Virus record (IMG/VR): IMGVR_UViG_3300030061_002646
Location: 5,293 to 46,370 of that record
DNA from: a virus
Length of the DNA: 41,078 nucleotides
Reading direction: 5' to 3' (one strand)
Under the pieces are notes generated by a model. The model saw only the letters and a list, made by a program, of their open reading frames with translations, made no database searches and was not told the DNA's origin. Below are positions 1,341 to 15,945 of this stretch, piece by piece. Both the position numbers and the translations under genes were made by a program. The stretch's first letter is position 1, and each line of letters begins with the position of its first letter.

Positions 1341-2300
1341 ATGTGGAGTGAAATAGCAAGGCCGAAAGTCATTACAGACATTGTTGGACAAAGGGATTTG
1401 GTTCAAGATGTCAGTCATTGGAAAGCAAGCAACACATGGCCTACTGCTTTGTTGTTCGTAGGACCACCCGGCACAGGTAAGACAAGCACAGCGCGTGTAA
1501 TTGCTAATGAGATGCTTGGTGAACATAATAATGATTTTAATTTCTTTGAAACCAATGGTTCTGATGATAGGGGTATAGATTTTGTGCGTACAGAATTAAA
1601 GACGTTACTAAGGACAAAACCTGTAGGTGTAGATAGGAAGATTGTCTTAATAGACGAGGCTGATGGTCTTACGTCCTCGGCACAAGATGCCATGAGACAA
1701 CTAATTGAAACATACAGTTCCAATGTATTAGTCATACTCACAGGTAATGAATTAGAAAAAATAAGACCTGCTATACGTTCCCGTTGTCGCACATACACCT
1801 TCAAACCAATAACACCGGATGAAGGTTCTGCTAGACTTTGGGATGTTCTTGTTGCTTTTGACGTTAGTAGGCAGGTCTTATTTGAATGGCAATTTCACAT
1901 ACCTACTTTGGTAGAAGTCATGAATGGGGATATGAGAGCCTGTTTGAATCTACTAGAGAGTTTACCTCATGATGAGAATTCTTTAGAAGAAAGAATTTCA
2001 AGTATCGTAGCATTAGAAGTTGAGAACTTGGGTGCCATAGCGATACAAGGCGAATGGATGAAATTAAGGAGCAAACTACATGGACTGTTGGATGAAGGGA
2101 TGCCTCTCCGTCATGTGACGGGAACCTTTTACAAACACATAAGGAGAGAATACAATGCATCTCTTACACAACCTGTTCTTTTCGATATCATGTGTGCTTA
2201 CGGTGATATTATGGTCAATATATACACTTGGCCTCAAGATGATTATTCCTTCTGTGACTATTTAGTTGCACGAATTAGAAAGGAAGTGAAAAATAAATGA
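1341..2300 (+). CDS. rfcS: Clamp loader, replication factor C small subunit
   Basis: This is an AAA+ ATPase that opens the PCNA ring and loads it at primer-template junctions. Motifs in order: the RFC-box-like N-terminus SEIARPKVITDIVGQ, Walker A GPPGTGKT at residues 41-48, Walker B IVLIDEAD at 101-108, sensor 1 around VILTGNE at 131-137, and the SRC arginine-finger motif at 147-149. At 319 residues it matches the usual archaeal RFC small subunit length (about 320). No large subunit is visible in the window, so the viral protein may act as a homo-oligomer or pair with the host large subunit; this is inference. The ATG at 1341 is supported by the TATA box about 20-28 bases upstream and the absence of a Shine-Dalgarno sequence. 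It overlaps the next gene by four bases (ATGA). The family assignment is firm. Confidence 0.95.
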   Translation: MWSEIARPKVITDIVGQRDLVQDVSHWKASNTWPTALLFVGPPGTGKTSTARVIANEMLGEHNNDFNFFETNGSDDRGIDFVRTELKTLLRTKPVGVDRKIVLIDEADGLTSSAQDAMRQLIETYSSNVLVILTGNELEKIRPAIRSRCRTYTFKPITPDEGSARLWDVLVAFDVSRQVLFEWQFHIPTLVEVMNGDMRACLNLLESLPHDENSLEERISSIVALEVENLGAIAIQGEWMKLRSKLHGLLDEGMPLRHVTGTFYKHIRREYNASLTQPVLFDIMCAYGDIMVNIYTWPQDDYSFCDYLVARIRKEVKNK

Positions 2301-3682
2301 ATGAAAGAAATATGAATAATATGATGAACGATGAAACGAACGAGGGTAAGCAAAACCCTTTCACGCAAACGAAGAACATGCAACCTAACCTAGCAGCACA
2401 GGCTAAACCAATGCCAACTGAGGTTATGGATAGACTTAGCAAACATGCAGAAAGAACAGGCGAGCATATAAGTAAGGTCATAGATTTTTACAAGAACTAC
2501 ATAAAAGAAAATTATGATTGCGATAATTGGTTTGATGAAGACGATGACTTGCTTGTAGATTGGGCTGAACAATGTTTTATTGTGTTAAGAAAAGGCACAA
2601 CCGGTGGTAGTAACAACACTACCTATGTAGGACAATTTATCGGAGTAGACGCAAAGAAAGCGAATAGAGGCACAGGACTACAAAGTTGGTTAGTTAGAGA
2701 ATATAGAAGCGATGCTAACCAAGCCATGGCTAAAGGCGCAGGGCATTATGTTGCAGTTAATGGTTTATGGACTATTAACACAGCAGAACATGGTGTGATT
2801 TCAACAGCACAACCATCTAGTGAAACACCGGAAATGGGTATACACGTAGGTGGCGGAGATTACATTTGCTTTGTGAGTAGACAAGGTAAACCTTACACAA
2901 CAGACGTTGACGGAAGATATGCTTATTTCTTAGGTAATGAGCAAGAAGCATTTGTTGATGATGGAGAGATAAAGATTTGGCGAGTAGACCTGAAAGGTGA
3001 TGATTCAGAACGTGCCATAAAAGTAGGGCACCCTTGTGTGATAAACGCTAGGCCACCTAAAGAGAATGCTACCGAATACCGTCAAGATATACTTGATACA
3101 TACGAAGGTTTCATGGACACTATTAACTACACAGATGAGTTCGTTGATGAGTCGGTAAGACCTTTACTTATGCCTTCTAAACTATGGACATCCAAAGACA
3201 TGCATGAATACGCTGTATCAATAGAAGACCTTACAGACGCTTATCATGATGGATTGCGCACTTTCCAAACCGGTGATGGTCAAGGTAGAATAGGTCCCTT
3301 GGTGTTTACACGGGGAACTGTAAATCGTCTGTCTACTGAAGCAAGAGAAACAGAATACGACCAAAACAACAGGCAATACAGTATGTCTTTATCATCTAGT
3401 GGTTTACAAAGTATGTATGGTCAAGGTGCAGGTTCTGAAGTTATGTGTAACATAGGTAGTGCTGTTCATGATTTAACACACCCTTTCAATTACACAGGTG
3501 TCAACGGTGAAATGTTTGAGTATGCCGAGCGTTCAACAGTATACGTCTTTGGACGTATAGGTATGATGATGAGAGACAATACAGAAATTCCTAAACTAAC
3601 GGTGTTTGGTATATATGTGGACCCAAGAAGAGCAAGACCAAGAGCGACAGGCGGCAACAGCAGCACCGCGCAATTTGAGTGA
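2297..3682 (+). CDS. Possible single-stranded DNA-binding (RPA-like) protein
   Basis: Function is not established. The 461-residue protein starts with about 40 polar, probably disordered residues. A short helical, very acidic stretch follows (DNWFDEDDDLLVDW near residues 76-90), then a long beta-rich body. The segment VYVFGRIG to LTVFGIYVDP near the C-terminus resembles OB-fold strands, and the protein ends in a flexible tail closing with STAQFE. Its place between the clamp loader and the RadA-like ATPase is where a replication-linked ssDNA-binding protein would be expected. No CxxC zinc motif, as found in many archaeal RPA proteins, is present. The start overlaps the RFC stop by four bases. 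An alternative is a virus-specific replication accessory protein with no OB fold. Coding status is secure; the function is a guess from fold-like patches and context. Confidence 0.85.
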   Translation: MNERNMNNMMNDETNEGKQNPFTQTKNMQPNLAAQAKPMPTEVMDRLSKHAERTGEHISKVIDFYKNYIKENYDCDNWFDEDDDLLVDWAEQCFIVLRKGTTGGSNNTTYVGQFIGVDAKKANRGTGLQSWLVREYRSDANQAMAKGAGHYVAVNGLWTINTAEHGVISTAQPSSETPEMGIHVGGGDYICFVSRQGKPYTTDVDGRYAYFLGNEQEAFVDDGEIKIWRVDLKGDDSERAIKVGHPCVINARPPKENATEYRQDILDTYEGFMDTINYTDEFVDESVRPLLMPSKLWTSKDMHEYAVSIEDLTDAYHDGLRTFQTGDGQGRIGPLVFTRGTVNRLSTEARETEYDQNNRQYSMSLSSSGLQSMYGQGAGSEVMCNIGSAVHDLTHPFNYTGVNGEMFEYAERSTVYVFGRIGMMMRDNTEIPKLTVFGIYVDPRRARPRATGGNSSTAQFE

Positions 3683-3687
3683 GGTGA
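3681..3687 (+). promoter_or_regulatory. Shine-Dalgarno site that sets the start at 3693
   Basis: GAGGTGA overlaps the stop codon of the preceding gene and lies five bases before the ATG at 3693. It is a near-complete match to the archaeal anti-Shine-Dalgarno sequence. It argues for the 91-residue product rather than a longer product starting at 3606 inside the upstream gene. Confidence 0.7.
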
Positions 3688-3692
3688 GATTG

Positions 3693-3968
3693 ATGGCTAC
3701 AAAGAAAGAATTAGAAGATAAAGTATTAGACTTGGAATTTCAAGCAAATGAAATGGTTAAAGCATACAACGCTTTACAGGTGGAAGCACAAACAAAACTT
3801 GACCAATTGAGTGCTGTGAACGGAAGACAGCAATTGATGATTACTCTTATGGAAACATTCGCTAACGAAGTTCTAACATCTACGAGGAAACTACAGAACA
3901 ATGTCGCACAAACCAATGCTACTTTACAGGAAGCAGAAGACAACATTACAAACGAGGATGAGAAATAA
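3693..3968 (+). CDS. Small coiled-coil protein
   Basis: This 91-residue protein is almost entirely predicted helix, with heptad-like spacing of leucine, valine and methionine (KKELEDKVLDLEFQANEM onward) and an acidic C-terminus ending in NEDEK. It has no cysteine and no catalytic motif. The start at 3693 is chosen because a strong Shine-Dalgarno sequence (3681-3687) precedes it; the open frame upstream to 3606 lies inside the previous gene. Its stop TAA overlaps the next ATG by one base. A small oligomeric coiled-coil protein between an ssDNA-binding candidate and a recombinase-like ATPase could be an accessory or bridging factor, but nothing in the sequence proves this. Confidence 0.8.
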   Translation: MATKKELEDKVLDLEFQANEMVKAYNALQVEAQTKLDQLSAVNGRQQLMITLMETFANEVLTSTRKLQNNVAQTNATLQEAEDNITNEDEK

Positions 3969-4927
3969 TGGCTGGCTTTGGTAAAACTAAAGAAATGCAA
4001 GAGCAGTTGGCTGATGAGGCCGCACCTCCACACGCTAGGAAAGACCCGTTTGCTGCTTTAGAAGCAGAAATGTCTATTATGAACAACCAAACAGGGCACA
4101 CATTTACAGCCTTGGTAGGGCACGAAAATACAGGTAAGAGTGCAGTAACAACTGCTGCTTATCGTATCTATGTTGAAAAGTGTATAGCAGAAGGCATCAC
4201 TCCGAAAGAATTTTGGGGACTCGATTTCGATGGTGGGTTGTTAGCCAACAAGAGTGCTTTCCACAGCGACTTAGATGGTATACGTTGTTGGGAACCATAT
4301 GTATACATGCAAGAAGATAGGACTGCTGTAAACTTCCCTGAGACACATAATCGTATAATGAGAATTTTGCAGTATGCTGTAAAGAACCATGAAAATTTGT
4401 GGGGTTTGATAGTAACGGGGTTAGACCAATATGATGCAATTTGTATTAACAACATGCGCATATTTGACCTCGGATTAGCGAAGGATGGTATTAGTGCGTC
4501 GGATAATAGGGGCATTGGTGCTGATGCTAAACGTGTAGAGTTTCAATGGGATTGGAGTATACGAAAAAATCGTTTTCACCAATTGACTACTCTATGTTCG
4601 GGTCTTGTAAAGAGAGGCGTTAAAGTGTTCTTAGAGACACATCTAACACAATCTAATCAGACCGATGATAGAAACTTAGGTTTGTCAGGTTGGAGACCCG
4701 CATGGGAAAAGACCACAGGTGCTTTAGTCTTTCAGATAATACATTTTGAAAGAGAAGATGTAAGAAACGAAGATGGTCTTCTAACACAACAAAGATTCAC
4801 AGCAACGTATGAGAAGTCTAAGACAGATGCTTCACTACAAGGCCAAAGGCGTACTTTATTAGTTACAGAAGTAGGTAAGAATCCTGTGTGGTATGGCTTA
4901 AAAGAACTCGATGAAGGCATCCTGTGA
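3968..4927 (+). CDS. RecA/RadA-like (Sak4-type) ATPase
   Basis: This 319-residue P-loop ATPase has Walker A GHENTGKSA at residues 51-59, a DFDGG motif at 86-90 typical of the AAA_24/Sak4 group, and a Walker B-like strand WGLIVTGLDQYD at 145-156. A later strand (KVFLETHLTQ) matches the switch region that senses ATP in RecA-fold proteins. Sak4-type proteins are single-domain RecA/RadA relatives that promote strand annealing or exchange in tailed viruses; here the likely role is recombination-dependent replication or repair. The N-terminal 40 residues are polar and probably flexible. It lacks the helix-hairpin-helix N-terminal domain of full archaeal RadA. The ATG overlaps the upstream stop by one base. 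The ATPase fold is firm; the recombinase role is likely but not proven. Confidence 0.88.
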   Translation: MAGFGKTKEMQEQLADEAAPPHARKDPFAALEAEMSIMNNQTGHTFTALVGHENTGKSAVTTAAYRIYVEKCIAEGITPKEFWGLDFDGGLLANKSAFHSDLDGIRCWEPYVYMQEDRTAVNFPETHNRIMRILQYAVKNHENLWGLIVTGLDQYDAICINNMRIFDLGLAKDGISASDNRGIGADAKRVEFQWDWSIRKNRFHQLTTLCSGLVKRGVKVFLETHLTQSNQTDDRNLGLSGWRPAWEKTTGALVFQIIHFEREDVRNEDGLLTQQRFTATYEKSKTDASLQGQRRTLLVTEVGKNPVWYGLKELDEGIL

Positions 4928-4931
4928 TACT

Positions 4932-5693
4932 ATGACTAAAGTGATATTAGACTCTAAGGTATGGGTAAATTTATTGTCATCATTAGGTGAAAACATCACC
5001 GATGTGGTGATAAACGCTAGTGCTCCTAGCACTATAGAATATCACGCTGCGCACAGCACATATTACGTACACTACAAGGTAACGCATGAAAATTCTGTAA
5101 AGAGAGGTGGAAACTTGACTATAACTGATATGAAAAAGACATTGACCTTTTTGAAAAATTGTAAAGGGGATGTAACGGTGCAACAAAGTGTATCTAAATT
5201 ATCGTTAAAGTGCAATAATAAAAAAATGACAATACCCCTGTTGAATTGCAAGAGCGCACAACTAGCGCCTACAATGTCATCACTCGTAGAGAATTCTCGT
5301 AAAGGACAATGGATAGGTTTTGGTAGAGGTACATTCACTACACATGGTACAGTGAACTTTGGTGATTTAATAGACGGGGCTAAGATTGCTAAGTCATTAA
5401 GTGTTAATTCGGAGTTCTTAATCAAGTCTAATGCCGAGGAAAAAGAGTTAATCTTACACGCATTCAAAACAGGCGGAACTTCAATTATATGTAACACAGA
5501 AATAAAAGATGCTCAAGGACCGAACCACACAACTTCCTCAAGTTTCGGTTCTTGGCTCTTGGGTTGTTTAACCATGCTTGATGGTAACGTAGACTCTACA
5601 ATTCACTGTGGGGATTCAATGGTCTTAGCCATTGAGCAAAGCGGCGAAGGGTGGGAACGTACTATCATCGTCTTAGACCAAGACGTGGCTTAG
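4932..5693 (+). CDS. pcn: PCNA-like sliding clamp
   Basis: This 253-residue protein is almost all beta strands and fits the size of an archaeal PCNA monomer (about 245-250). The N-terminus MTKVILDSKVWVNLLSSL matches the first strand and helix of clamp proteins. The C-terminal part (STIHCGDSMVLAIEQSG and following) resembles the last clamp strands, but the usual C-terminal APRI motif is missing. I prefer the ATG at 4932 over 4911 because clamp folds begin with this strand right after the methionine, and 4911 would overlap the upstream gene by 17 bases. It sits directly before PolB (stop TAG followed at once by ATG), the partner it would tether to DNA, and downstream of its loader RFC. Sequence is divergent, so the call leans on fold pattern, length and context. 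Confidence 0.78.
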   Translation: MTKVILDSKVWVNLLSSLGENITDVVINASAPSTIEYHAAHSTYYVHYKVTHENSVKRGGNLTITDMKKTLTFLKNCKGDVTVQQSVSKLSLKCNNKKMTIPLLNCKSAQLAPTMSSLVENSRKGQWIGFGRGTFTTHGTVNFGDLIDGAKIAKSLSVNSEFLIKSNAEEKELILHAFKTGGTSIICNTEIKDAQGPNHTTSSSFGSWLLGCLTMLDGNVDSTIHCGDSMVLAIEQSGEGWERTIIVLDQDVA

Positions 5694-8069
5694 ATGATTG
5701 TAGATTATTACTTCCCTGATGGGTTCGATATGGATGAACAACCTAGTCTATACCTACGCACAAGAGATAAGAATGGTACACTAGACATACGCACTATACA
5801 CCCCGATGAAGATGGTTATGTAAGGCCATATTGTTGGGCTCCCGTTAATACTTCTGAAAGAAGTAAAATGAGGGTCTCTAGGATGATTAGAGGCGTAAGA
5901 TATCATCATCAGGAATTGGCTAAGGGTAAAGATGGTATGGATTTATTCAAGATAAGTGTGGATAATCCAATGCACCTCAGACAAATTAAGGAAATGATAC
6001 GCACTTATGAGGCAGACATGCCTTATGAAGACCAAGTTTTAGCAAACTTATACCCAAAGAAGTTGCCTGAGTTTCACCCTCGTGTATGGTATTTTGATTT
6101 AGAATGGGATGTGAAAAGCCAATTTACTACAGTTATGGCTATTGATGATACACACGCTGAACATCCTGTTGTTTTCGCATGGACTGAAGAATCCAATGTG
6201 GAATGGCGTAAGAAAACCATAGAGACTGCTATGGAGACTAAATGGATTGATAGAGAAGGCGGCTATGAACTTAGATTGTATGGGGATGAAGGAACTATGC
6301 ACAATGGTTTCTTAGAACATTTAGATGATTGCGACCCTGATATACTAATGGCACATGCAATTGCTTGGGCTGACCTCCCACACATGATTAAAAGACTAGA
6401 AAATCCTGATAGATTAAGCCCTTTGAATGATGTTGTGAGGCCGCACTTCAAAAAAGGCTACAAAGAAACACAACAACCTATAACGGGTAGATTAATTTTT
6501 GATAGCGCTGCTAAAGGTAGTATGGGTAGCGGTTTTGAAACTCTATGGATGAAATCAGGCAACGGTAGTTTTCCTAATAGAAAACTAGACACAATTGCTA
6601 AAGAATTAAAATTTGAAGGTAAACTATCAGAAGACAGCGAAGGCAATAAATTGGATGTGTTGACTTGGTGGTATACTCACACAGACTTATTCATAGATTA
6701 TTGTTTGAGAGACACTACGCTATTGCGTCAGTGTAGCGAAAAACTCAATGCAATACCGTTCTTCATAGCCATGCAACAATTTTGTGGCGTTCAGTGGAAG
6801 AGCACACACAATGTATCTAATTACGCTAGAGGGTTGTTTGGTAGATACACAGACTTGAAAGCCCCAACGTCATATAGATACAATAGAGATAAATTGAGGG
6901 CGGCTAATGTATTAAAAACCCAAGCAGGAAGATGGGAAGGTGTAGCCTTGTTGGATTTCGCAAGCCTATATCCAAGAATAATTGTCGATGGAAATTTGTG
7001 TCCTACCACCAAAAGAGACAAACCCGGTGAAGGTATTAGGGTGTTCCCTGATGGTTCTTGTTGGGACACAACAACAAAAGGTGTGTTACCAAGAATCGTA
7101 GAAGACCTATTGGAACTAAGAAAGACATACAAGAAATTAATGAATGATGCTTCTACGGAAGATGAGAGATTAGGATATGAGATGCTTCAATTGGCTGTTA
7201 AGGTCAATACCAATGCTTTGTATGGCTATCTATCACAATCTAAAGTGGGTGGCATGTGGACCGACCCTGATGTTGGGGCGGCAATCACATCTATGGGTAG
7301 AGAGTCTATTGGTCTCCTTATGGCCGAAAGTGAACGTGAAGGATTCAAAGTATTAGCAGGACACACTGATTCTTGCTACGTGCAAGTCTCATTAGACAAA
7401 GTAGAAGATTTAGTAGCACATCTTAATGAAACTGTGCGCACACAACTAAACCTACCAAATATAGACGTAGAATTTGAGGCATTCTTTGATTATTGGTTCA
7501 CTACCGATGCTAAAAATAGAAACTTTGGTATTATCACATGGCCTGAAAATAAAAAAGGCTACCTAAAAGTAACAGGTTTTGAACAGAAAGCAGCCAACGC
7601 AAGTCCAATTACTAAAGAGATACAAGAAATAATTTTTCATAAGATATCCACAGGTGCTGAAGAAGATGAGATTAATGCTTTGATAAGACCCATATCGTTA
7701 TCGTTAATCAACGGAGAGTTTACACCTTCGGAACTTGCACCATACGGTAGATTGGGTAAAGAAACATACGATAGAGTGCCACCTAATGCTGCTAAAGGTG
7801 CTTTATATTACAATGAACATTTGTCCACTAATGACCCTATAAGGGTTCAAGATAGTGCACAATGGATTCATGTTAGTGCTGTGCCCGAAGGTCTACCACA
7901 AACAAACATAGTCTCATTTCGTTCAGAAGATGAAATTGATGGCTTCATAATCGACTACCACACAATGGTTGATAAGTTTATCAAAGCAAAGATAAAACCT
8001 ATTTACGATGTGTTAGAATGGGATTTAGGCTATCCATGTGGTGACAAAGTGCCTAAGAAATATTGGTGA
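5694..8069 (+). CDS. polB: Family B DNA polymerase with 3'-5' exonuclease
   Basis: This is the replicative polymerase. Exonuclease motifs: Exo I YFDLEWD (D135, E137); Exo II around residues 214-229, ending in ADLP with D227 kept but the usual asparagine replaced by A222 and the phenylalanine before the aspartate by A226; Exo III YCLRD (Y336, D340). Polymerase motifs: motif A DFASLYPRI at 421-429 (D421), motif B KVNTNALYG at 503-511, motif C GHTDS at 556-560, and a KKGY motif at 620-623 before the thumb. The catalytic D559 of motif C is kept, but the first aspartate of the usual DTDS is histidine (H557). All metal ligands of both active sites appear present. At 791 residues it is a typical compact archaeal or viral PolB. 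The ATG directly follows the clamp stop codon with no gap. Confidence 0.97.
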   Translation: MIVDYYFPDGFDMDEQPSLYLRTRDKNGTLDIRTIHPDEDGYVRPYCWAPVNTSERSKMRVSRMIRGVRYHHQELAKGKDGMDLFKISVDNPMHLRQIKEMIRTYEADMPYEDQVLANLYPKKLPEFHPRVWYFDLEWDVKSQFTTVMAIDDTHAEHPVVFAWTEESNVEWRKKTIETAMETKWIDREGGYELRLYGDEGTMHNGFLEHLDDCDPDILMAHAIAWADLPHMIKRLENPDRLSPLNDVVRPHFKKGYKETQQPITGRLIFDSAAKGSMGSGFETLWMKSGNGSFPNRKLDTIAKELKFEGKLSEDSEGNKLDVLTWWYTHTDLFIDYCLRDTTLLRQCSEKLNAIPFFIAMQQFCGVQWKSTHNVSNYARGLFGRYTDLKAPTSYRYNRDKLRAANVLKTQAGRWEGVALLDFASLYPRIIVDGNLCPTTKRDKPGEGIRVFPDGSCWDTTTKGVLPRIVEDLLELRKTYKKLMNDASTEDERLGYEMLQLAVKVNTNALYGYLSQSKVGGMWTDPDVGAAITSMGRESIGLLMAESEREGFKVLAGHTDSCYVQVSLDKVEDLVAHLNETVRTQLNLPNIDVEFEAFFDYWFTTDAKNRNFGIITWPENKKGYLKVTGFEQKAANASPITKEIQEIIFHKISTGAEEDEINALIRPISLSLINGEFTPSELAPYGRLGKETYDRVPPNAAKGALYYNEHLSTNDPIRVQDSAQWIHVSAVPEGLPQTNIVSFRSEDEIDGFIIDYHTMVDKFIKAKIKPIYDVLEWDLGYPCGDKVPKKYW

Positions 8070-8073
8070 TAAA

Positions 8074-8256
8074 ATGAGTGAAATAGAAGATATAGTAATA
8101 AAAAAGATAGAAGCAAGAGCAGAAACAGGTGAACGTAAGTATAATACAACAATGGAAAGAGTTGATTTGACAAGAAAGGCATGGTTAATTCATGCACAGG
8201 AAGAGGCTTTGGACTTAGCAATTTATTTGCAGAAGTTGATAATGTTGGAGGAATGA
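8074..8256 (+). CDS. Small MazG-like helical protein (fragment-like)
   Basis: This 60-residue helical protein contains a GERKYNTTMERVDLT segment, then HAQEEALDLAIYL with an EExxD motif. That pattern resembles small phage proteins related to the all-alpha NTP pyrophosphatases (MazG/dUTPase-like), in which EExx..D ligands bind magnesium. Only one half of the usual ligand set is visible, so enzymatic activity is uncertain; it could act as an oligomer or be a non-catalytic relative. The start at 8074 is four bases after the PolB stop. The frame is open back to 8038 but that region belongs to PolB. The stop overlaps the region used to start the next gene. A nucleotide-pool role would fit the replication operon but is an inference. 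Confidence 0.75.
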   Translation: MSEIEDIVIKKIEARAETGERKYNTTMERVDLTRKAWLIHAQEEALDLAIYLQKLIMLEE

Positions 8257-8258
8257 GA

Positions 8259-8420: not shown

Positions 8421-8653
8421 GTAGCAACTACCCTGATGGAATGACAGCAGCAGACCATGCGCACCTAGATGGTGTGCCTGATGATTGCGAACATGAAAAT
8501 AGTTATTGTGAAGGTTGGAGATACCCCGACAAGGCTGTTGATAAAGGTTGGATAATTTTAGAAATGCGATGTGATGATTGCGGAGCAACAAGCGAACAAG
8601 ATATTGAAATTGATAATCTACTTGATGATATAAAAATGGAGAAAGCAACATGA
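8417..8653 (+). CDS. Small acidic protein with a probable zinc site
   Basis: The 78-residue product contains CEHENSYC and later CDDC (MRCDDCGATSEQD), a possible four-ligand zinc site, plus several histidines in the first 20 residues. It is strongly acidic overall. The gene overlaps its neighbours by four bases on both sides (ATGA junctions), a sign of translational coupling within the operon. I do not recognise the family. The CxxCG element resembles one knuckle of a zinc ribbon and the other knuckle is irregular, so the metal site is probable rather than certain. Confidence 0.75.
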   Translation: MSSNYPDGMTAADHAHLDGVPDDCEHENSYCEGWRYPDKAVDKGWIILEMRCDDCGATSEQDIEIDNLLDDIKMEKAT

Positions 8654-9660
8654 AATTATACAAATTTAATCCAAACGATAAAACATTTACAGAATCATCA
8701 GATTTCAAAGATGAAGAGTTAATGGCTTCGTATAATGAAAGTTCTTACAATTGGCCCGCTGAAGGTAACAAATTAAGGATGACTAAATCCACAATTGGTG
8801 CTCATGATTGGTGTCCGTATAAATACTATTTACAATATGTGTTGGGACACAAAAGCAGCGAAACAGAACCTATGGTTAGAGGAACCAATGTGCACAATGT
8901 TGTAGAATATTTTTGGGATAAAATAGATGATGTTCTAAAAGATATAGAAAAACACCTTGATGATGGTAAAAACGCTTTGGCTAAAGATTCTCTTAGGAGC
9001 ATACTACCTTATCCTGAAGAAGGTTATAGACACAGCGAACAAACTGCGATAGACCAATGGATTGAATGGCAATGGGCTAGATTGCTTGTGTGCCATCAAA
9101 ATGGCGATATCAACACATGGCCTCCTGTAGGCAACGAGGTTGAGATACACGCTACCCAAGACGTAGAATATAATGGCGAAATGTATAATGTGCATTTGAA
9201 AGGTTATGTCGATACAATATTTAGCGATGGTGATGGTGGGTTTGTCTTGATGGAACTTAAAACAGGTAAATGGAAGAATGCACCTTACAAATTTTCTTCA
9301 ATGAGATTAGAGATGTATTTTTACATGAACATGATAGTGCAAGCGCAACGTAGTGAATTTCTACCTGTGACGCATTGGGCTTGGGAATATCCCTATGGAC
9401 AAGTGAACAATGGCGATGGAGCAGAATGGTGTATTGAAGAAACTAAAACCAAAGCAAGATATGCTAAGAAATCTTTAGATACAAAAATGAAAAAATTACT
9501 AAAAGCACATATAGAACATGACTTTCAACCGATTCATAAAGAAACGTGTAGTAAGTGGTGCAGGTGCTTAAGTGTGCAGTGTGCTTGGTGTGATTTTGTG
9601 CATATGTGCCCTGCTCACAATAAAGAAGAAGATTTCCTAATAAATACGGAGGAACAATAA
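8650..9660 (+). CDS. Cas4/RecB-like PD-(D/E)XK nuclease with Fe-S cysteines
   Basis: This 336-residue nuclease carries the RecB-family core: H82 in RGTNVHNVVEYF, D188 in GYVDTI, and E202-x-K204 in MELKTGK, followed by the helix around RLEMYFYM that usually carries the QxxxY motif. One cysteine lies before the core (C55, in DWCPYKYY), and a cluster lies at the C-terminus (C300, C304, C306, C311, C314, C320). This is the arrangement used by Cas4 and AddB/Dna2-type enzymes to hold a 4Fe-4S cluster, with some cysteines left over. The likely activity is DNA end or flap processing in replication and recombination. No CRISPR array or other cas gene is in the window, so a role in adaptation is not suggested. 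The upstream overlap of four bases places it in the replication operon. Confidence 0.88.
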   Translation: MKLYKFNPNDKTFTESSDFKDEELMASYNESSYNWPAEGNKLRMTKSTIGAHDWCPYKYYLQYVLGHKSSETEPMVRGTNVHNVVEYFWDKIDDVLKDIEKHLDDGKNALAKDSLRSILPYPEEGYRHSEQTAIDQWIEWQWARLLVCHQNGDINTWPPVGNEVEIHATQDVEYNGEMYNVHLKGYVDTIFSDGDGGFVLMELKTGKWKNAPYKFSSMRLEMYFYMNMIVQAQRSEFLPVTHWAWEYPYGQVNNGDGAEWCIEETKTKARYAKKSLDTKMKKLLKAHIEHDFQPIHKETCSKWCRCLSVQCAWCDFVHMCPAHNKEEDFLINTEEQ

Positions 9661-9966
9661 ATGAAAATAAAAAACATGAAACAAAAAATAGAAGAAACAG
9701 AAAATTGGATAAACAAAAGAGTGATGAGTGAAAACATTATGTTGTATGATGAATTACCGCGAGTAAATGTGTATTTGTCTAATATGGGAGTCAAAGGCGA
9801 TAGATTAAGAGTCGTAAATGGTTTTCAGGAAACATTGGATGGTGGGGGTTATTCCGCTTTCGATGTAGCGATAAATCCTGTATATTTTGTCGAAAAAGGC
9901 AAATTTGCAGCAGAAATCATTGGCAACGAAGCGATTGAGAAGTATCTTAAAATTATCAGGGGATAA
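9661..9966 (+). CDS. Unrecognised 101-residue protein
   Basis: No family is recognised. The N-terminal 25 residues are highly charged and helical (KIKNMKQKIEETENWINK), followed by a compact alpha/beta part with a glycine-rich turn (LDGGGYSAFDVAI). There are no cysteines, signal peptide or membrane segment. The ATG follows the TAA of the nuclease gene with no gap, and the primase ATG lies four bases after its stop, so it is embedded in the operon. It could be an accessory to either neighbour, but nothing in the sequence says so. Confidence 0.72.
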   Translation: MKIKNMKQKIEETENWINKRVMSENIMLYDELPRVNVYLSNMGVKGDRLRVVNGFQETLDGGGYSAFDVAINPVYFVEKGKFAAEIIGNEAIEKYLKIIRG

Positions 9967-9970
9967 ACCC

Positions 9971-11065
9971 ATGAGTTTCGTGCACATGGATTACCCTAGA
10001 GAGGTATTAGAAATAGGTGCGAACGGTCAAAAAGGTTACAGGCGTATAGTTAACAACGCCAAAGAACTAGAAAAGTATTGGGGTGGTAAAAACGGTATTG
10101 GTAATATATACTTTACAGCATATGGTTATAGAGGAACTACACCACCTAAACATCACCGCGTAGATTACAATACACCCATAATAAGACATTTTGTAATGGA
10201 TTTTGATTGTAAAGATTTTAGAAATAAACAAGTTGATGTAGAGTTTTCGTTTATGCACGAACAAGTAAAAAGACTCCATCAACACTTCATTCTAAACGAT
10301 ATACAGCACTATGTGTGGTTTAGCGGTGGAGGTTTTCATATATACGTGAGTTTGTCTGAAACATTGATGCCTAGCAACGGTTTTGAAGTTACTAGAATTA
10401 AAGATGGTGGTAAACAAATGATAAATGTATGGCATAAAGAGTTGAACATATCTTGTAATGACCCTACTGTGGCTTTCGACACAGCGGGCATGATAAGAAT
10501 ACCCAACTCCTATAATATGAGAAGAGGTTGTTGGTCTATACCTTTGAATACAGATGAAATAATGTCATTAGACCATTATGAATTATTAGACCTAGCACAA
10601 GATTCTAGAGAGGGTTATATCAAACACGGTAGCACACCTATAACATTCGTAATGCCTAAGAAAAGAAAAGCAATGTTCAAAAAGAACAGAAAATTGGTAA
10701 ACTTACCTGATGTATCTTATGATAAAATACTGATTTTACCATGTTTAGTTCAGGCCGCTTTGGGTGAAGGTAATCCAACACACAAGGCACGTTTTCACTT
10801 AGCGAATTATTTAGCAGCAAGACACAGGTGGTTCTTTCACCCCAACACAGTAAAAGACGATGCTAAGAAAGAACACATAGAAAAAATTGTAAATTTGTGT
10901 TCTCAACAAGGTTGGGTGGATTTTGATGAAGATATAACTAGAACCCAAGTTACAAGCGTAGTGGAAGGAGGTTATTCTTTGTCTACCTGTAAGACTTTGA
11001 TTAATGAGGGTCTTTGCACAGGCGTATGTAGATACTATGACGGCACAGCGGAGGACATTCTATGA
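9971..11065 (+). CDS. Fused archaeo-eukaryotic primase (PriS core plus PriL-type Fe-S domain)
   Basis: The 364-residue protein joins two parts that are normally separate subunits. The N-terminal half is a PriS-type primase core: DxD at D77/D79 (FVMDFDCKD), the SGGGFH motif at 118-123 that binds the nucleotide, and a third acidic residue D170 in AFDTAGMIRIPNS. The C-terminal part (about 250-364) matches the PriL C-terminal domain: C258 in LPCLV, then HKARFHLANYL, then C340, C349 and C353, the four cysteines expected to hold a 4Fe-4S cluster. It makes RNA or DNA primers for PolB. The start at 9971 is chosen because it is the first ATG after the upstream stop; the frame is open back to 9887 only inside the previous gene. 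It overlaps the next gene by four bases (ATGA). Confidence 0.9.
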   Translation: MSFVHMDYPREVLEIGANGQKGYRRIVNNAKELEKYWGGKNGIGNIYFTAYGYRGTTPPKHHRVDYNTPIIRHFVMDFDCKDFRNKQVDVEFSFMHEQVKRLHQHFILNDIQHYVWFSGGGFHIYVSLSETLMPSNGFEVTRIKDGGKQMINVWHKELNISCNDPTVAFDTAGMIRIPNSYNMRRGCWSIPLNTDEIMSLDHYELLDLAQDSREGYIKHGSTPITFVMPKKRKAMFKKNRKLVNLPDVSYDKILILPCLVQAALGEGNPTHKARFHLANYLAARHRWFFHPNTVKDDAKKEHIEKIVNLCSQQGWVDFDEDITRTQVTSVVEGGYSLSTCKTLINEGLCTGVCRYYDGTAEDIL

Positions 11066-11280
11066 GTGGAAGATGTAGAATATGCAAAACCAAGTTAGGT
11101 ACTAGAAACCATACATCTAGAATGAAGACGAATACAAATCTATGCGTAAGTTGTTTAAGACACCCTATAGAGGAAGAACAATGTGTAGGTATTACTTCTA
11201 AAGGCGTAAGATGCAAATTAAGAAAGTATAAAGATGCACAGTATTGCAAAGTGCATATGTGGATGTGTAATGATGCCTAA
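11062..11280 (+). CDS. Small double zinc-motif protein
   Basis: The 72-residue protein has two cysteine-rich units. The first has CRIC at residues 5-8 and CVSC near 28-31. The second follows the pattern C-x9-C-x10-C-x2-H (QCVGITSKGVRC then YCKVH), a recurrent small viral and plasmid zinc module. It is strongly basic, consistent with nucleic acid binding. It overlaps the primase stop by four bases and in turn overlaps the start of the nuclease gene. No family name can be given with confidence. Confidence 0.8.
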   Translation: MSGRCRICKTKLGTRNHTSRMKTNTNLCVSCLRHPIEEEQCVGITSKGVRCKLRKYKDAQYCKVHMWMCNDA

Positions 11281-11971
11281 GCCCGATTTAATCATAGATA
11301 GCAACGAGAGAGGTTCACTTTGTGAGTCAGTTATTAGAAAAGCAGAAAAAGAAGGTTTAACAGTTATTAGAAAAGCACTAATGGTTGGAGATTATCTTCT
11401 AGGTGAGGCATGTATTGAAGCAAAGAGCATCAACGACTTGTTTCTTTCAAGCCATAGCGGGCATTTATGGAGACAGTTAGACAATATGGATGCCAACTAC
11501 CCAAGATTTTTTCTAGTAGTTCATGGTTCAATCTCTAAATATGTATCTATGGCAAAAAATTCAGGACGTAAAACAACATATTCTAGGGTGCAAAATGAAC
11601 TAATGGGCACAATAGCAAGAATAATGGCTGATTTTGAATGTCAAGTATTTTTTACAGAAAACCATTCCGAAGCAGCCATGTTCATAGTGAAATTACACGA
11701 TAAGTTGCACAAACCTGCTTCTAGTCATGGTGCTAGAGCAATAAGAAGAGTAAGCACAAACGATGTAAGATTAGACGTGTTAATCGCAATACCCGGTATA
11801 GGAAAAGAAATAGGAGAAAGAATACTAGAAGAATGTGGCTCAATACAAGAAATGCTTTTTCCTGAGTCATTGAGAATGGTGAAGGGTCTTGGGGATGTGA
11901 TGAGAAGTAGAATCATAAAAGTTCTAACAGAAGAAGAGCCTGTATTCGTAGAAAGAAGGATTAGAAGATAA
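11273..11971 (+). CDS. XPF/ERCC4-type nuclease with helix-hairpin-helix domain
   Basis: This 232-residue protein combines an ERCC4 nuclease domain and a C-terminal (HhH)2 domain, the layout of archaeal XPF/Hef nuclease halves and Mus81-like enzymes. Nuclease residues: D9 (IIDSNERG), E12, G39-D40 (MVGDYLLG), and E49-A-K51 followed by D55, corresponding to the GDxn-ERKx3D motif with the arginine replaced by alanine. HhH hairpins are seen at about 168-188 (IAIPGIGKEIGERIL) and 202-218 (VKGLGDVMRSRIIKVL). The likely substrate is a branched or flap DNA structure arising in replication or recombination. The ATG at 11273 (or 11270, one codon earlier) overlaps the end of the zinc protein gene. This is the last gene of the first long operon. 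Confidence 0.9.
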   Translation: MPKPDLIIDSNERGSLCESVIRKAEKEGLTVIRKALMVGDYLLGEACIEAKSINDLFLSSHSGHLWRQLDNMDANYPRFFLVVHGSISKYVSMAKNSGRKTTYSRVQNELMGTIARIMADFECQVFFTENHSEAAMFIVKLHDKLHKPASSHGARAIRRVSTNDVRLDVLIAIPGIGKEIGERILEECGSIQEMLFPESLRMVKGLGDVMRSRIIKVLTEEEPVFVERRIRR

Positions 11972-11979
11972 TCAAATTA

Positions 11980-11989
11980 GTATATAAAG
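11980..11989 (+). promoter_or_regulatory. TATA box upstream of the helicase operon
   Basis: GTATATAAAG lies nine bases after the stop of the XPF-like gene. The wider string TTAGTATATAAA at 11978-11989 is identical to the one at the RFC promoter. Transcription from it would start near 12010, giving a leader of about 55-60 bases before the ATG at 12067. A second TATA-like sequence lies in the palindrome at 12019-12032. Confidence 0.6.
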
Positions 11990-12001
11990 GACACTTAATT
12001 A

Positions 12002-12062
12002 TTTCAATGTTTCAATTATATGTATATACATAACAATAATATACTGACCCATGCAGGGGTCA
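12002..12062 (+). promoter_or_regulatory. Palindrome-rich leader: candidate operator region
   Basis: Three symmetrical elements are packed into 61 bases. TTTCAAT is repeated directly at 12002-12008 and 12010-12016. TATGTATATACATA at 12019-12032 is a perfect 14-base palindrome that also contains a TATA-like core. TGACCC at 12045-12050 and GGGTCA at 12057-12062 form a perfect inverted repeat with a six-base spacer, ending four bases before the ATG. The last element could be a protein-binding site near the start of a transcript from the inner TATA, or a hairpin that masks the G-rich ribosome-binding sequence at 12056-12059. The regulator is unknown. Confidence 0.5.
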
Positions 12063-12066
12063 AATT

Positions 12067-13464
12067 ATGAGAAGAGCAGACCAATATCAAGCGGCGAAAA
12101 AATTCCCCATATTCAAGGGTTTTATAGAGCATTTTAATCAAACATCTATAGATAACGACATACCCGGTATGCTATCCTTTTTCTTTATACAAGGACAAGT
12201 ATCAGTGCCATATGTGCGCATACCTTGGGGTTCATCGCATCTTGATACTAGGAATCACGTCTTTTGGATTCAATCTTCTAGGACAGGTAAATCTATTGCA
12301 TGGGAATTTATTGGAGATGTTCTAAGAGACATAGGTGTGCCTTCTGATATGTATACAACGGGCACCGATGCGGGTCTAATTGGTGGTTTTGAAATGGAAG
12401 AAGACGAAGATGGTAATAAAACACCAATCTTGAAAGAAGGTATGTTAGCAGGAAGAAAAGCATTAAACTTTGATGAAGGTAGTATTATACTAAATCCTAA
12501 TAGACACTCAATGGAGACTGTTCTATATTTACAGTCGGCTTGCAATCCTGTTGGTTCAAACAATAACATTCTAGTGAAACACACTAAGACAGGTAGAATT
12601 GAAACTGAATCTATGGTGTCTTTGTGGATTACAACCTATCCTCCAAGCGGAGTTAAAGAATATGTATTGACTAAGGGAATATTTCAAAGAGTTTTATTGT
12701 ATTGGAGTCATTGGAGCACAGAACGTCGTAAGAATGTCAGTATGATAAGAGCAGAAAGCGCATACAAAAAAATGCCTAAACTGAGCGTTAGTTATGATGA
12801 TGTTACTAAGCATTTCATAGACCTAGACAAGAGATTAAGAAACCGTGTATTAGAATTAACTGAGACCCCCTTCGTTGTGTGGGACGGTATGACACGTCAT
12901 GAACAGGAAGAACTCGTGCAAGAAGTCATGACTGTTATGTTCTATCCTGAAGAAGAGACATTTTATCCTGCGCTTAGAGATGCAATAGACGATTACTATA
13001 GTCTACTTCAAGGGCTCAACCCTGCTATTATGGAAGTAGTCTCATCTTTCGTCCCTGCTATGGAAAACAACACATTAATTTTTGCAACTCACATGGCTAT
13101 GATGGATAACTCTTGGGCTGTTACAGGAGAGCATGTAGATATGTCTAAAGATATATTATTCGATATATTCAAGAATCTAATACTTTGGTTGGAAGATGAA
13201 GTAGACATTGGCCCTAAAGCACAAGAGAAAGGCGCTATGAGAGGCAAGTGGACTTTGGCCTATCAAAACGTGGAGAGTATAGAATTAGGGAAAAGAGGTG
13301 ATGGTTGGAAAGCCAAGACCAAGGTTATTAAAGCGTATGAAACACAGAATGATTGTTCACGAGGAAGCGCATACAATAACTTTGAGAAATGGGGAGAGAA
13401 TTTGTTCAACACAGCAAAAGACGGTAGAGTAGTCTTTATCCGAATGAAGGAGGATTTAGAATGA
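12067..13464 (+). CDS. AAA+ ATPase, candidate replicative helicase (MCM/DUF3987-like)
   Basis: The 465-residue ATPase has Walker A QSSRTGKS at 69-76, Walker B LNFDEG at 133-138, a sensor-like strand SLWITTYPP at 185-193, and a candidate arginine finger R208 in GIFQRVLLYW. Between Walker A and B lies a GMLAGRKAL segment that resembles the strand before Walker B in MCM and related viral helicase-type ATPases. The C-terminal third, with alternating helices and basic residues and ending near residue 455, could be a winged-helix domain. As the only helicase-like gene near PolB and primase it is the best candidate for unwinding the fork. It lacks the classic MCM N-terminal zinc domain, so the exact family is open. 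It begins the second operon and overlaps the next gene by four bases. Confidence 0.82.
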   Translation: MRRADQYQAAKKFPIFKGFIEHFNQTSIDNDIPGMLSFFFIQGQVSVPYVRIPWGSSHLDTRNHVFWIQSSRTGKSIAWEFIGDVLRDIGVPSDMYTTGTDAGLIGGFEMEEDEDGNKTPILKEGMLAGRKALNFDEGSIILNPNRHSMETVLYLQSACNPVGSNNNILVKHTKTGRIETESMVSLWITTYPPSGVKEYVLTKGIFQRVLLYWSHWSTERRKNVSMIRAESAYKKMPKLSVSYDDVTKHFIDLDKRLRNRVLELTETPFVVWDGMTRHEQEELVQEVMTVMFYPEEETFYPALRDAIDDYYSLLQGLNPAIMEVVSSFVPAMENNTLIFATHMAMMDNSWAVTGEHVDMSKDILFDIFKNLILWLEDEVDIGPKAQEKGAMRGKWTLAYQNVESIELGKRGDGWKAKTKVIKAYETQNDCSRGSAYNNFEKWGENLFNTAKDGRVVFIRMKEDLE

Positions 13465-14072
13465 CTGATATATTATCACTAGACATTGAGACAAGCAACT
13501 ATTCGTGGGAAATCGGAGGGTGGGGTAATCTATCTTTATTTGAGCCTAGTGTAATTGCTACATGGGATGGAGAGAATGCTACTATATTCAGCAAGGAAGA
13601 CACCATAGAAGTTGAAGGTGCCACATTACATCCTCTACACCCTGAGATTCTAGGTGATTTCTTAAGCGCACACATAGAGAAAGGTGGCAAAATTTTGGGG
13701 CATAACATCATTAAATTTGATTTACCTGTTATACGTGACTCGCTAGACTGTTGGGCTGCTGGTGATGTGTTAGGTAAAAGCGACTCTATAATAGACACCA
13801 AGGTATTATTTGCTAAGGCATCATTATCATATGGTAAATTATTAACATCTCTAGGAGATTTAGCAAAACATAATTTAAACACAGACAAACTAATGGCTAG
13901 TGAAGATGCCCCTCTTGCATGGAGAGCAGGTAAATTCAACGAAGTAGCGGAATATTGTCTTAAAGATGCACAACTCACCTATGACCTATATCAGATGGGG
14001 CGTGAAAATAACATGCTGAAATCTAGATGTAGAGAAACAGGCGATATAAAAGAAGTAGAATTGGAGTGGTAA
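13461..14072 (+). CDS. DEDDy 3'-5' exonuclease, RNase H-like fold
   Basis: This 203-residue protein has all three exonuclease motifs: Exo I LSLDIET (D8, E10), Exo II GHNIIKFDLP (N82, D87), and Exo III YCLKD (Y165, D169), making it a DEDDy enzyme of the RNase_H_2/PolB-exonuclease type. The family degrades DNA or RNA from the 3' end with two metal ions. Because PolB here has its own exonuclease domain, this is a second, free-standing activity; it might back up proofreading, trim recombination intermediates or remove RNA. The gene overlaps the helicase stop by four bases (ATGA), suggesting joint expression. No other domain is visible. Confidence 0.9.
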   Translation: MTDILSLDIETSNYSWEIGGWGNLSLFEPSVIATWDGENATIFSKEDTIEVEGATLHPLHPEILGDFLSAHIEKGGKILGHNIIKFDLPVIRDSLDCWAAGDVLGKSDSIIDTKVLFAKASLSYGKLLTSLGDLAKHNLNTDKLMASEDAPLAWRAGKFNEVAEYCLKDAQLTYDLYQMGRENNMLKSRCRETGDIKEVELEW

Positions 14073-14075
14073 AAA

Positions 14076-14273
14076 ATGGATATAAATGAAGAAATAAAAT
14101 TGAAAGCAGGTATACATAGGTTGCTGACAGCGCTAACTCAAGGCGGGGCTTTAAGCGATATACAAAGAATGGCGAATCAAATAGCAATCAATGTGGGTTG
14201 GCCTTTTTACGATGAAGATGAATTAGATTCTGATGCTGAAGCACGCACCGTTGGTATGGAAGGTGAAGAATAA
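14076..14273 (+). CDS. Small acidic protein of unknown function
   Basis: The 65-residue protein is helical in its first 40 residues and strongly acidic in the last 25 (DEDELDSDAEA and MEGEE). No family is recognised and there are no cysteines. The ATG is three bases after the exonuclease stop, and its stop TAA overlaps the thermosome ATG by one base. Its acidic tail could mediate contact with a basic partner, but this is only a guess. Confidence 0.72.
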   Translation: MDINEEIKLKAGIHRLLTALTQGGALSDIQRMANQIAINVGWPFYDEDELDSDAEARTVGMEGEE

Positions 14274-15775
14274 TGTCTGATAACGCAATAGACCCTTTAC
14301 ATAGTAACATTCGTGCAGCGCGTGCTATAGTCAACACAGTGCGCACAACATTAGGTCCACGTGGGAGAGATAAGATGTTGGTAGATGCTTCAGGTAGCAC
14401 AATAATAACTAACGATGGTGCTACAATACTTCGTGAGGTAGAATCAGCACACCCTGCTGCGAAAATGATAATTGACATTAGTAAAACACAGGAAAGTCTG
14501 TGTTATGATGGCACAACAAGCACAGTAGTGTTAGCAGGTCAAATGCTCGCTGATTCTGAAAATCTACTCAGTCAAGGTGTTCCCCCTACTATAATGTGTG
14601 ATGGTTACAATCTTGCTGCTAGTATGGGCGTAAAATATCTAGATGATGTATTATCTAGAGATGTAGAAGAAGGAGATTTAGAAAAAATAGCAGAAACAGC
14701 GATAAGTGGTAAAACATTAGCATCAGCGAAAAAAACTGTTGCTGAACTTTGTGTAGAGGCTGTAAGGATAGCAGGAGATGCTGACAATGTAAAGGTCTTA
14801 ACGTTCCCCGGAGGTTCTTTGACAGACTCACATTTATTCAAAGGTGTTGTAGTAAACAAAGATTTCGCAATTCAAATGGTAAACCCACCAAAAAATACTC
14901 ACGCTTTGCTACTTATGACCGGTTTAGAGGTTGTTAAAGAACAACATACTCCGCAGGTGCAAGTAAGCGATATGAAAACCTATGACAACATAGTATCTAG
15001 AAGTTCAGTAGCATTGAGTGAAAATGCAAGAAAGATTGCTTCTTTGTTGCCTGATGGTGGTGTATTATTTTGTAGAGATAACATGGCAGATTCTGTTTTG
15101 GCCTTTTTGCATAAGCACAATATAGCCGTTGTGAAAAGAGTTCAAGAAAGCACCATGAGAGGACTATCATCGGCACTAGGGCTTTCTATAGCACAAACAC
15201 CTGAAGATTTAGAAATAGCGGCATCATGTAAACTACTGAGAAATAAACATAATGATGTTCATTATTTGTTTGTAGAAGGCGAAGTAGATTCATCGCAATC
15301 AACTCTAATAGTTAGAGGGGCTAGTCATACTACTTTAGACGAAGTAGAAAGAGGATTCGATGACGCACTAGGTGTGGTGTCTCTAGTCATGAATGGGGGC
15401 AAAGTAGTATCGGGCGGAGGCTCAACTTATGCAGCAATTGCTTCTTACCTAAGAGCAGAAGCACCAAAAGTAGAAGGTATGGAACAAATGGCAATAAACT
15501 CCTTCGCTGATACATTGGAAATAATACCTGCTACCATAGGTGAAGTAGCCGGACACACACCTTTGAACTGTGTATTTGCTTTGAGACACTCATTATCTGA
15601 AGGTAAACTCACCATGGGGCCTGATGTGAAAAACATCAATCAAATCATAGATATGAAGACTTTAGGTATAGTTGAACCTGCTCTATTGGTAAGACAAGCG
15701 ATACTAAGTGCCACTGAAGTAACTACCGCGATATTAAAAATAGATGACATAGTAGTGAAAAGAGGGGCGGAGTAA
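14273..15775 (+). CDS. ths: Group II chaperonin (thermosome subunit)
   Basis: This 500-residue subunit of a double-ring ATP-driven folding chamber shows LGPRGRDKMLVD (28-38), TNDGATIL (46-53), the ATPase motif YDGTTS at 78-83 (usually GDGTT), GGKVVSGGGS in the equatorial domain, and the C-terminal TAILKIDDIV. It is 30-50 residues shorter than typical archaeal subunits, mostly at the N-terminus and by lack of a glycine-methionine-rich tail. Since only one subunit gene is present, it would form homo-oligomers or mix with host subunits. A chaperonin in a viral operon next to replication genes may serve folding of large virion proteins such as the giant tail protein; that link is inference. The ATG overlaps the upstream stop by one base. 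Confidence 0.96.
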   Translation: MSDNAIDPLHSNIRAARAIVNTVRTTLGPRGRDKMLVDASGSTIITNDGATILREVESAHPAAKMIIDISKTQESLCYDGTTSTVVLAGQMLADSENLLSQGVPPTIMCDGYNLAASMGVKYLDDVLSRDVEEGDLEKIAETAISGKTLASAKKTVAELCVEAVRIAGDADNVKVLTFPGGSLTDSHLFKGVVVNKDFAIQMVNPPKNTHALLLMTGLEVVKEQHTPQVQVSDMKTYDNIVSRSSVALSENARKIASLLPDGGVLFCRDNMADSVLAFLHKHNIAVVKRVQESTMRGLSSALGLSIAQTPEDLEIAASCKLLRNKHNDVHYLFVEGEVDSSQSTLIVRGASHTTLDEVERGFDDALGVVSLVMNGGKVVSGGGSTYAAIASYLRAEAPKVEGMEQMAINSFADTLEIIPATIGEVAGHTPLNCVFALRHSLSEGKLTMGPDVKNINQIIDMKTLGIVEPALLVRQAILSATEVTTAILKIDDIVVKRGAE

Positions 15776-15945
15776 TGGGAAGGTTGATGGACAAACTAAA
15801 TGTGTCCTGTAGAAACTGTAATGAAAGACATGTACCACGTAGATTAACCGCTAGATATCACGATAAAATTATAAGAAAAAGAGTGCATTTGTGGGAATGT
15901 AAATTTTGTAAACACATATGGAAAGATTCAGCATTCAATAAGTAA
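15775..15945 (+). CDS. Small basic zinc-ribbon protein, 56 residues
   Basis: A short gene begins one base into the thermosome stop (TAATG) and runs to TAA at 15943-15945. The 56-residue product has two CxxC pairs, CRNC at residues 12-15 and CKFC at 42-45, and is strongly basic (RRLTARYHDKIIRKR in between). That is the shape of a nucleic-acid-binding zinc ribbon. The overlap with the upstream stop and the clean CxxC-x26-CxxC spacing support a real gene despite its size. It closes the second operon; the following 300 bases are non-coding in appearance. Confidence 0.75.
   Translation: MGRLMDKLNVSCRNCNERHVPRRLTARYHDKIIRKRVHLWECKFCKHIWKDSAFNK

What the first reader, a model, noticed from the sequence alone, without database searches (positions are those of the whole stretch)
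1341..15945. Nearly complete archaeal-type replisome plus a thermosome encoded by a tailed virus
Clamp loader, clamp, PolB, primase, helicase candidate, RadA-like ATPase, three nuclease types and a group II chaperonin sit in two compact operons, next to a tail-gene block on the other strand. This matches what is known of magroviruses of Marine Group II archaea. Few archaeal viruses carry so much of the replication machinery together with a chaperonin.
Basis: partly seen in the sequence, partly recalled or inferred. Interest (0 to 1): 0.75.

Follow-up and report, generated by a model that had tools for sequence, protein, structure and literature searches.

The report
Magrovirus-type replication genes with thermosome
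This is a piece of a marine archaeal tailed virus that carries its own DNA-copying genes and a protein-folding chamber, a combination first described in 2017, so it is a good new example of a known virus group rather than a new kind of system.

Summary
The finding is real and already has a name. The window is the middle contig of an 86-kb virus scaffold whose third contig holds capsid, protease, portal and terminase genes. At 1341-15775 lie an RFC clamp loader, a probable ssDNA-binding protein, a P-loop ATPase, a clamp candidate, PolB, a PD-(D/E)XK exonuclease, a primase, an ERCC4 nuclease, an MCM-like helicase candidate, a DnaQ-like exonuclease and a group II chaperonin. Clamp and helicase stay unproven. 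The cassette is co-linear in 51 of 59 related IMG/VR loci, and in 55 of 55 the chaperonin accompanies the exonuclease, so the combination is routine for this clade. Nishimura et al. 2017 reported it for Marine Group II virus 'clade 1'; ICTV now has the order Magrovirales. Viral thermosomes form one clade grouping with Poseidoniales thermosomes at only 37-42% identity: one old capture. Two side findings look newer. The clade's 'DNA ligase' is a ligase fold without its catalytic lysine (58 of 58 sequences) inside a 1,805-aa head-module protein. A 5,470-aa tail-region protein is conserved at 5,484-6,362 aa. Named magrovirus genomes were not held, so membership could not be tested by tree.

The parts
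1341..2300 (+). RFC small-subunit-like clamp loader (319 aa)
   Evidence: Pfam AAA and DNA_pol3_delta2; phrog_168 clamp loader 1e-42; P. furiosus RFCS structure 5e-43; 34-35% identity to Poseidoniales RFC
2297..3682 (+). Probable ssDNA-binding protein (461 aa): N-terminal helical domain plus OB folds
   Evidence: AlphaFold model pLDDT 80; Foldseek best hits bacterial SSB and RPA OB folds, best E 5e-5; conserved in 49 relatives; occupies the place of HVTV-1 gp104 before an ATPase gene
3968..4927 (+). P-loop ATPase, possibly RecA/Sak4-like recombinase (319 aa)
   Evidence: conserved Walker A GHENTGK(S/T) and LDFDGG in alignment A5; no Pfam, PHROG or PDB match
4911..5693 (+). Sliding clamp candidate (260 aa)
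   Evidence: size 248-279 aa and place next to PolB in relatives; no significant match to known PCNA
5694..8069 (+). Family B DNA polymerase, single ORF (791 aa)
   Evidence: Pfam DNA_pol_B 1e-31; phrog_262 2e-62; 46-77% identity to other viral loci; about 25% to Poseidoniales PolB
8650..9660 (+). PD-(D/E)XK (RecB/Cas4-like) exonuclease (336 aa)
   Evidence: Pfam PDDEXK_1 4e-17; phrog_1218 exonuclease 3e-12
9968..11065 (+). Archaeo-eukaryotic primase; C-terminal Cys-rich region resembles PriL-CTD (365 aa, start inferred from relatives)
   Evidence: hhalign 97.5% with HVTV-1 gp100; phrog_16345 primase 9e-7; invariant Cys 259, 341, 350, 354
11234..11971 (+). ERCC4-type nuclease with helix-hairpin-helix (245 aa)
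   Evidence: Pfam ERCC4 4e-19, HHH_5
12067..13464 (+). AAA+ helicase candidate, MCM-like (465 aa)
   Evidence: invariant S-R-x-G-K-S and N-F-D-E-G motifs; Foldseek hits mostly MCM, best E 0.023; no sequence match to MCM
13461..14072 (+). DnaQ/PolB-exonuclease-like 3'-5' exonuclease (203 aa)
   Evidence: Pfam DNA_pol_B_exo2 9e-4; phrog_17 7e-11, phrog_403 3e-8
14273..15775 (+). Group II chaperonin (thermosome), 500 aa; built-in lid segment and nucleotide-site residues align
   Evidence: Pfam Cpn60_TCP1 2e-117; Thermoplasma thermosome 1e-90 over residues 10-497; trees
16784..16993 (-). Tail-fibre assembly chaperone-like protein
   Evidence: Pfam Phage_tail_APC 1e-5, just under its cut-off; phrog_8716, phrog_4912
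17003..19438 (-). Tail spike / virion structural protein (811 aa)
   Evidence: phrog_6002 1e-35, phrog_4636 2e-26
26875..41076 (-). Giant tail-region ORF, part inside the window (whole frame 5,470 aa across a 10-N gap)
   Evidence: single frames of 5,484-6,362 aa in 9 related records; LamG-like N-terminal region

Best explanation
The locus is the replication module of a tailed, probably lytic virus of the magrovirus group that infects Marine Group II (Poseidoniales) archaea. After infection the virus makes its own fork: the AAA+ helicase opens DNA, the SSB coats it, the primase lays primers, and PolB extends them on a clamp loaded by the virus RFC. The PD-(D/E)XK exonuclease, P-loop ATPase and ERCC4 nuclease would process ends and recombination intermediates in a T4-like way. 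The thermosome, captured once long ago from a Poseidoniales-like host, would fold virion proteins made from the opposing late module. Ligase and transcription would come from the host. Gene content, order, relatives and trees are shown here; each step of the mechanism is inferred from family knowledge.
For: Gene identities. Capsid, portal, terminase and protease in the same record; PolB and MCP relatives share one record in at least six related records of 81-102 kb, so the link does not rest on this scaffold. Cassette co-linear in 51 of 59 loci; chaperonin present with the exonuclease in 55 of 55; 13 of 13 large records carry exactly one Cpn60 gene. MCP 33% to Druskaviridae, with similar head-gene order in HVTV-1. 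Viral thermosomes monophyletic 100/100 and, with Poseidoniales thermosomes, split from other archaea at 100/97. Published description of MGII viruses with group II chaperonin.
Against: No named magrovirus genome was available for a tree or gene-sharing test. Clamp and helicase identities are not proven. The record is three contigs joined by 10-N gaps. Host assignment rests on the thermosome tree and literature, not on a spacer or single-cell link.
Confidence: 0.88

Rival explanations
1. The window is a stretch of archaeal chromosome or an integrated provirus, and the replication genes are cellular.
For: RFC, PolB, primase and thermosome are all families of cellular archaea.
Against: The record is an 86-kb virus scaffold with capsid, portal, terminase and protease; PolB has 46-77% relatives in other viral loci and only about 25% to Poseidoniales PolB; none of 79 sampled genomes of that order has a thermosome above 42% identity.
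Confidence: 0.02
2. It is a related tailed archaeal virus outside Magrovirales, for example a new family between magroviruses and Druskaviridae, or one of another marine archaeal host.
For: Druskaviridae share MCP homology and the primase; HVTV-1 has clamp loaders, PolB and RecB in one module. No named magrovirus genome could be compared.
Against: Most reported magrovirus hallmarks that could be tested are present; the group II chaperonin matches Nishimura clade 1; the ligase-like gene adjoins the prohead protease, as a read mapped to a group A magrovirus suggests (PMC7318539); the thermosome groups with Poseidoniales.
Confidence: 0.09
3. The thermosome is an auxiliary gene that supports host metabolism or stress tolerance rather than virion assembly.
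For: No virion or expression data exist for it; the gene sits at the end of the replication cassette, not in the virion module.
Against: It is fixed at the same place in 55 of 55 relatives and present in 13 of 13 large records, unlike patchy metabolic genes; the clade encodes unusually large virion-region proteins.
Confidence: 0.2

Closest known systems
MGII virus clade 1 of Nishimura et al. 2017 (PMC5332604)
   Same: Tailed marine virus, PolB of halovirus/euryarchaeal affinity, group II chaperonin in all 18 members, chaperonin grouping with MGII
   Different: Sequences not held here; assignment to this clade rests on gene content only
Magrovirales: Apasviridae / magrovirus group A (PMC12999244)
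   Same: PolB, archaeal primase, PD-(D/E)XK nuclease, helicase, two opposed modules; ligase-like gene beside prohead protease as reported for a group A genome
   Different: Exemplar is 108 kb, this scaffold 86 kb in three pieces; the ligase-like domain here lacks the catalytic lysine; no tree possible
Magrovirales: Aoguangviridae / magrovirus group B (PMC10768690)
   Same: RFC, clamp, PolB, primase, MCM, exonuclease, chaperonin and two opposed modules reported
   Different: Reported split PolB and bacterial-type GroEL/GroES; here PolB is one ORF and the chaperonin is group II
Druskaviridae (HVTV-1, HCTV-1, HCTV-5)
   Same: MCP 33% identical, homologous primase, PolB/RecB/clamp loaders in one module, TerL-portal-protease-MCP order
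   Different: No chaperonin annotated in the HVTV-1 stretches read; two clamp loader genes; largest ORF annotated in those stretches 1,313 aa

Membership tests
Order Magrovirales (magroviruses) | HK97-type tailed-virus module: MCP, maturation protease, portal, TerL | tested here: met
   MCP phrog_24667 8e-58, protease 6e-13; portal 5e-62, TerL 6e-59
Order Magrovirales (magroviruses) | Replication and virion genes in two opposed clusters | tested here: met
   Replication genes on + strand to 15775, virion genes on - strand from 16477 to the record end
Order Magrovirales (magroviruses) | Virus-encoded PolB, primase and clamp loader | tested here: met
Order Magrovirales (magroviruses) | Sliding clamp (PCNA) | tested here: inconclusive
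   candidate 4911-5693 by size and place; no significant profile match
Order Magrovirales (magroviruses) | MCM-type replicative helicase | tested here: inconclusive
   weak MCM-like fold E 0.023 with pLDDT 70; no sequence match
Order Magrovirales (magroviruses) | ATP-dependent DNA ligase | tested here: inconclusive
   ligase fold present (PDB profile match 4e-6) but motif I lysine absent in 58 of 58; the published feature is annotation only
Order Magrovirales (magroviruses) | Genome of about 90-110 kb | tested here: inconclusive
   86,261 bp scaffold with two gaps; several relatives 95-107 kb
Order Magrovirales (magroviruses) | Association with Poseidoniales | tested here: inconclusive
   thermosome groups with Poseidoniales copies against other archaea, 100/97; no direct host link
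Order Magrovirales (magroviruses) | PolB/MCP phylogeny with exemplar genomes | not testable with these tools
   ON649702, OR863078, PP497040 not held
Family Aoguangviridae | PolB encoded as separate N- and C-terminal ORFs | tested here: not met
   single 791-aa PolB ORF; feature from the figure legend
Family Aoguangviridae | Bacterial-type GroEL and GroES | tested here: not met
   only Cpn60 gene in the record is group II
Nishimura MGII virus clade 1 | Group II chaperonin grouping with MGII thermosomes | tested here: met
   reported feature
Family Druskaviridae | Close MCP and PolB relationship to HVTV-1/HCTV-1/HCTV-5 | tested here: not met
   MCP 32-33%, PolB 21-24% identity to haloviruses, against 80-98% MCP identity to marine viral contigs
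Group II chaperonin (thermosome) | Full-length equatorial/intermediate/apical domains with built-in lid and conserved nucleotide site | tested here: met
   aligned over residues 10-497 to Thermoplasma alpha without loss of the lid segment; NDGAT, DGTT, SGK and FDDA motifs present

The most novel reading that the evidence does not exclude
In this thermosome-bearing magrovirus clade the gene annotated as ATP-dependent DNA ligase is not a replication enzyme: it is a lysine-less ligase fold at the C-terminal end of an about 1,800-aa protein made with the head genes between portal and protease, probably a structural or DNA-contacting head component. These viruses would then lack their own ligase and depend on the host's, and their chaperonin would serve a virion that also contains a conserved 5.5-6.4-thousand-residue tail protein.
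Probability: 0.5. Interest if true: 0.5.

Novelty: new member of a known kind. Interest (0 to 1): 0.35.

Why it matters
It adds a conserved, well-bounded example of a virus replisome with a host-derived thermosome, and shows the combination is a fixed trait of a widespread marine virus clade. It makes two points testable: whether the published 'DNA ligase' of these viruses is an enzyme at all, and whether the virus chaperonin serves very large virion proteins.

Tried and rejected
Direct retrieval of named magrovirus genomes ON649702, OR863078 and PP497040 failed, and the Philosof 2017 and Prabhu 2025 papers are not held. Sequence profiles of the clamp, helicase and ATPase against the PDB gave nothing useful; profile comparison with Poseidoniales MCM and PCNA was insignificant. 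I considered the giant ORF as a tape measure protein because of its place; its make-up and LamG-like start argue against that. The joining of viral thermosomes with Poseidoniales paralog B in the first tree was flagged as a meeting of long branches and not relied on; trees without paralogs B and C were used instead. A weak ligase hit looked like a working replisome part until its motif I was read across relatives. No tRNA genes, and no shared 16-mers between the first and last 3 kb of the record.

Full report
What the record is. The window is G000:C1:5293-46370 of an 86,261-bp virus record. It is flanked on both sides by runs of ten N (record positions 5283-5292 and 46371-46380), so it is one contig of a three-piece scaffold. 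The third piece carries the head module on the minus strand: terminase large subunit, portal, maturation protease and HK97 major capsid protein, plus a tail tube protein. The link between replication and head modules does not rest on this scaffold: PolB and MCP relatives occur on one record in at least six related records of 81-102 kb (L007/L067, L016/L099, L023/L085, L062/L079, L058/L130, L056/L071).

What the genes are. Clamp loader, PolB, PD-(D/E)XK exonuclease, ERCC4-HHH nuclease, DnaQ-like exonuclease and chaperonin are supported by Pfam and PHROGs. The clamp loader best matches archaeal RFC small subunits of known structure. The primase has no Pfam match of its own but is homologous to HVTV-1 gp100 (97.5% probability) and matches a viral primase profile; four invariant cysteines near its C-terminal end resemble, from general knowledge, the iron-sulphur domain of archaeal PriL. 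The helicase candidate has conserved nucleotide-binding motifs and a low-confidence model whose matches are mostly MCM at E 0.02 and above; sequence profiles do not confirm it. The clamp is a candidate by size and place only.

Conservation. Eleven genes from clamp loader to chaperonin lie in the same order and strand in 51 of 59 related loci, and all eleven are present in 42 (the test asks for at least three of the genes per locus, and one locus is a near-identical copy of this virus). In the five exceptions printed, the clamp candidate lies after PolB instead of before it. Wherever the DnaQ-like gene is present the chaperonin is present too, 55 of 55, and each of 13 large records carries exactly one Cpn60 gene. 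The combination is therefore a fixed trait of the clade and not a rarity within it.

Origin. Viral thermosomes are monophyletic (100/100) and, with Poseidoniales thermosomes, are split from other archaea (100/97); whether they branch beside or within the Poseidoniales set is not resolved (70/85). In 79 genomes sampled from that order the best full-length thermosome is about 37-42% identical, so the capture is old. Order assignment rests on UBA40, which NCBI places in Candidatus Poseidoniales. PolB is about 25% and RFC 34-35% identical to Poseidoniales copies, against 46-77% PolB identity between viruses. The replication genes thus belong to a viral lineage. Haloviruses are the nearest annotated phage records for PolB and MCP.

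Literature. Nishimura et al. 2017 report four MGII virus clades; all 18 members of clade 1 carry group II chaperonins, while 20 members of clades 2 to 4 carry group I (PMC5332604). ICTV profiles describe Magrovirales with virus-encoded replisomes (PMC10768690, PMC12999244). A 2020 survey of B-family polymerases notes that haloviruses and magroviruses encode clamp and clamp loader together with a B5/T4-like PolB (PMC7544198). The finding is therefore already described in kind. The split PolB and GroEL/GroES reported for Aoguangviridae are not met here; the group II chaperonin and the ligase-like gene next to the protease fit clade 1 and group A, but this could not be tested by tree.

The ligase. 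The only match to the ATP-dependent ligase family in 11 of 13 large records lies in an ORF of about 1,700-2,150 aa; here that ORF is 1,805 aa, between portal and protease. A profile of the region matches archaeal DNA ligase structures (4eq5 E=4e-6), so the fold is credible, but the position of the catalytic lysine holds M, W, Y, L, Q, H or F in 58 of 58 sequences, and the acidic residue of motif IV is mostly missing. I infer that the domain cannot adenylate. The statement that almost all vOTUs encode DNA ligase (PMC10160649) may need re-reading for this clade. Limits: only the Pfam ligase family was searched genome-wide, not NAD-dependent ligase, and the sequences sampled are relatives by MCP.

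Mechanism, shown and inferred. Shown: gene content, order, conservation, capsid module, relatives and trees. Inferred: helicase, SSB, primase, PolB, clamp and RFC form a fork; exonuclease, ATPase and ERCC4 nuclease serve recombination; the chaperonin folds virion proteins; ligase and transcription come from the host. Overall: a sound new member of a known kind, with two side observations that deserve their own follow-up.

Noticed in passing
window 26875-41078 (-) continuing into L003 1-2309: A giant ORF of 5,470 aa, conserved as one frame of 5,484-6,362 aa in 9 related records; LamG-like N-terminal region, no other Pfam or PHROG match, and no match of its C-terminal third in the phage collection. 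In this record it crosses a 10-N gap.
   Followed up: partly
L003:15923 to L004:1340 (-): 1,805-aa ORF between portal and protease with a C-terminal ligase fold that lacks the motif I lysine in 58 of 58 sequences.
   Followed up: yes
G000 5283-5292 and 46371-46380: Ten-N gaps on both sides of the window: the record is a three-contig scaffold.
   Followed up: yes
L009, L010, L011, L012, L019: In a subset of relatives the clamp candidate gene lies after PolB instead of before it.
   Followed up: no
L147 (NZMJ01000138.1): A contig filed under a Maricaulis MAG carries a chaperonin 76% identical to this one, preceded by ORFs of 232, 465 and 203 aa as in the viral cassette: apparently a misbinned relative of this virus.
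   Followed up: partly
G001-G005: Poseidoniales-type MAGs carry three distinct group II chaperonin genes and, in most, a further bacterial-like Cpn60; the viral copy is nearest to only one of them.
   Followed up: partly
window 12004-12047: Palindromic stretch around TATGTATATACATA in the short gap before the helicase candidate gene; could be a promoter or regulator site.
   Followed up: no
window 19404-19437 and 22635-22668: 34-base direct repeat at 91% identity, which encodes the shared N-terminal start of two neighbouring tail-fibre-like genes.
   Followed up: no
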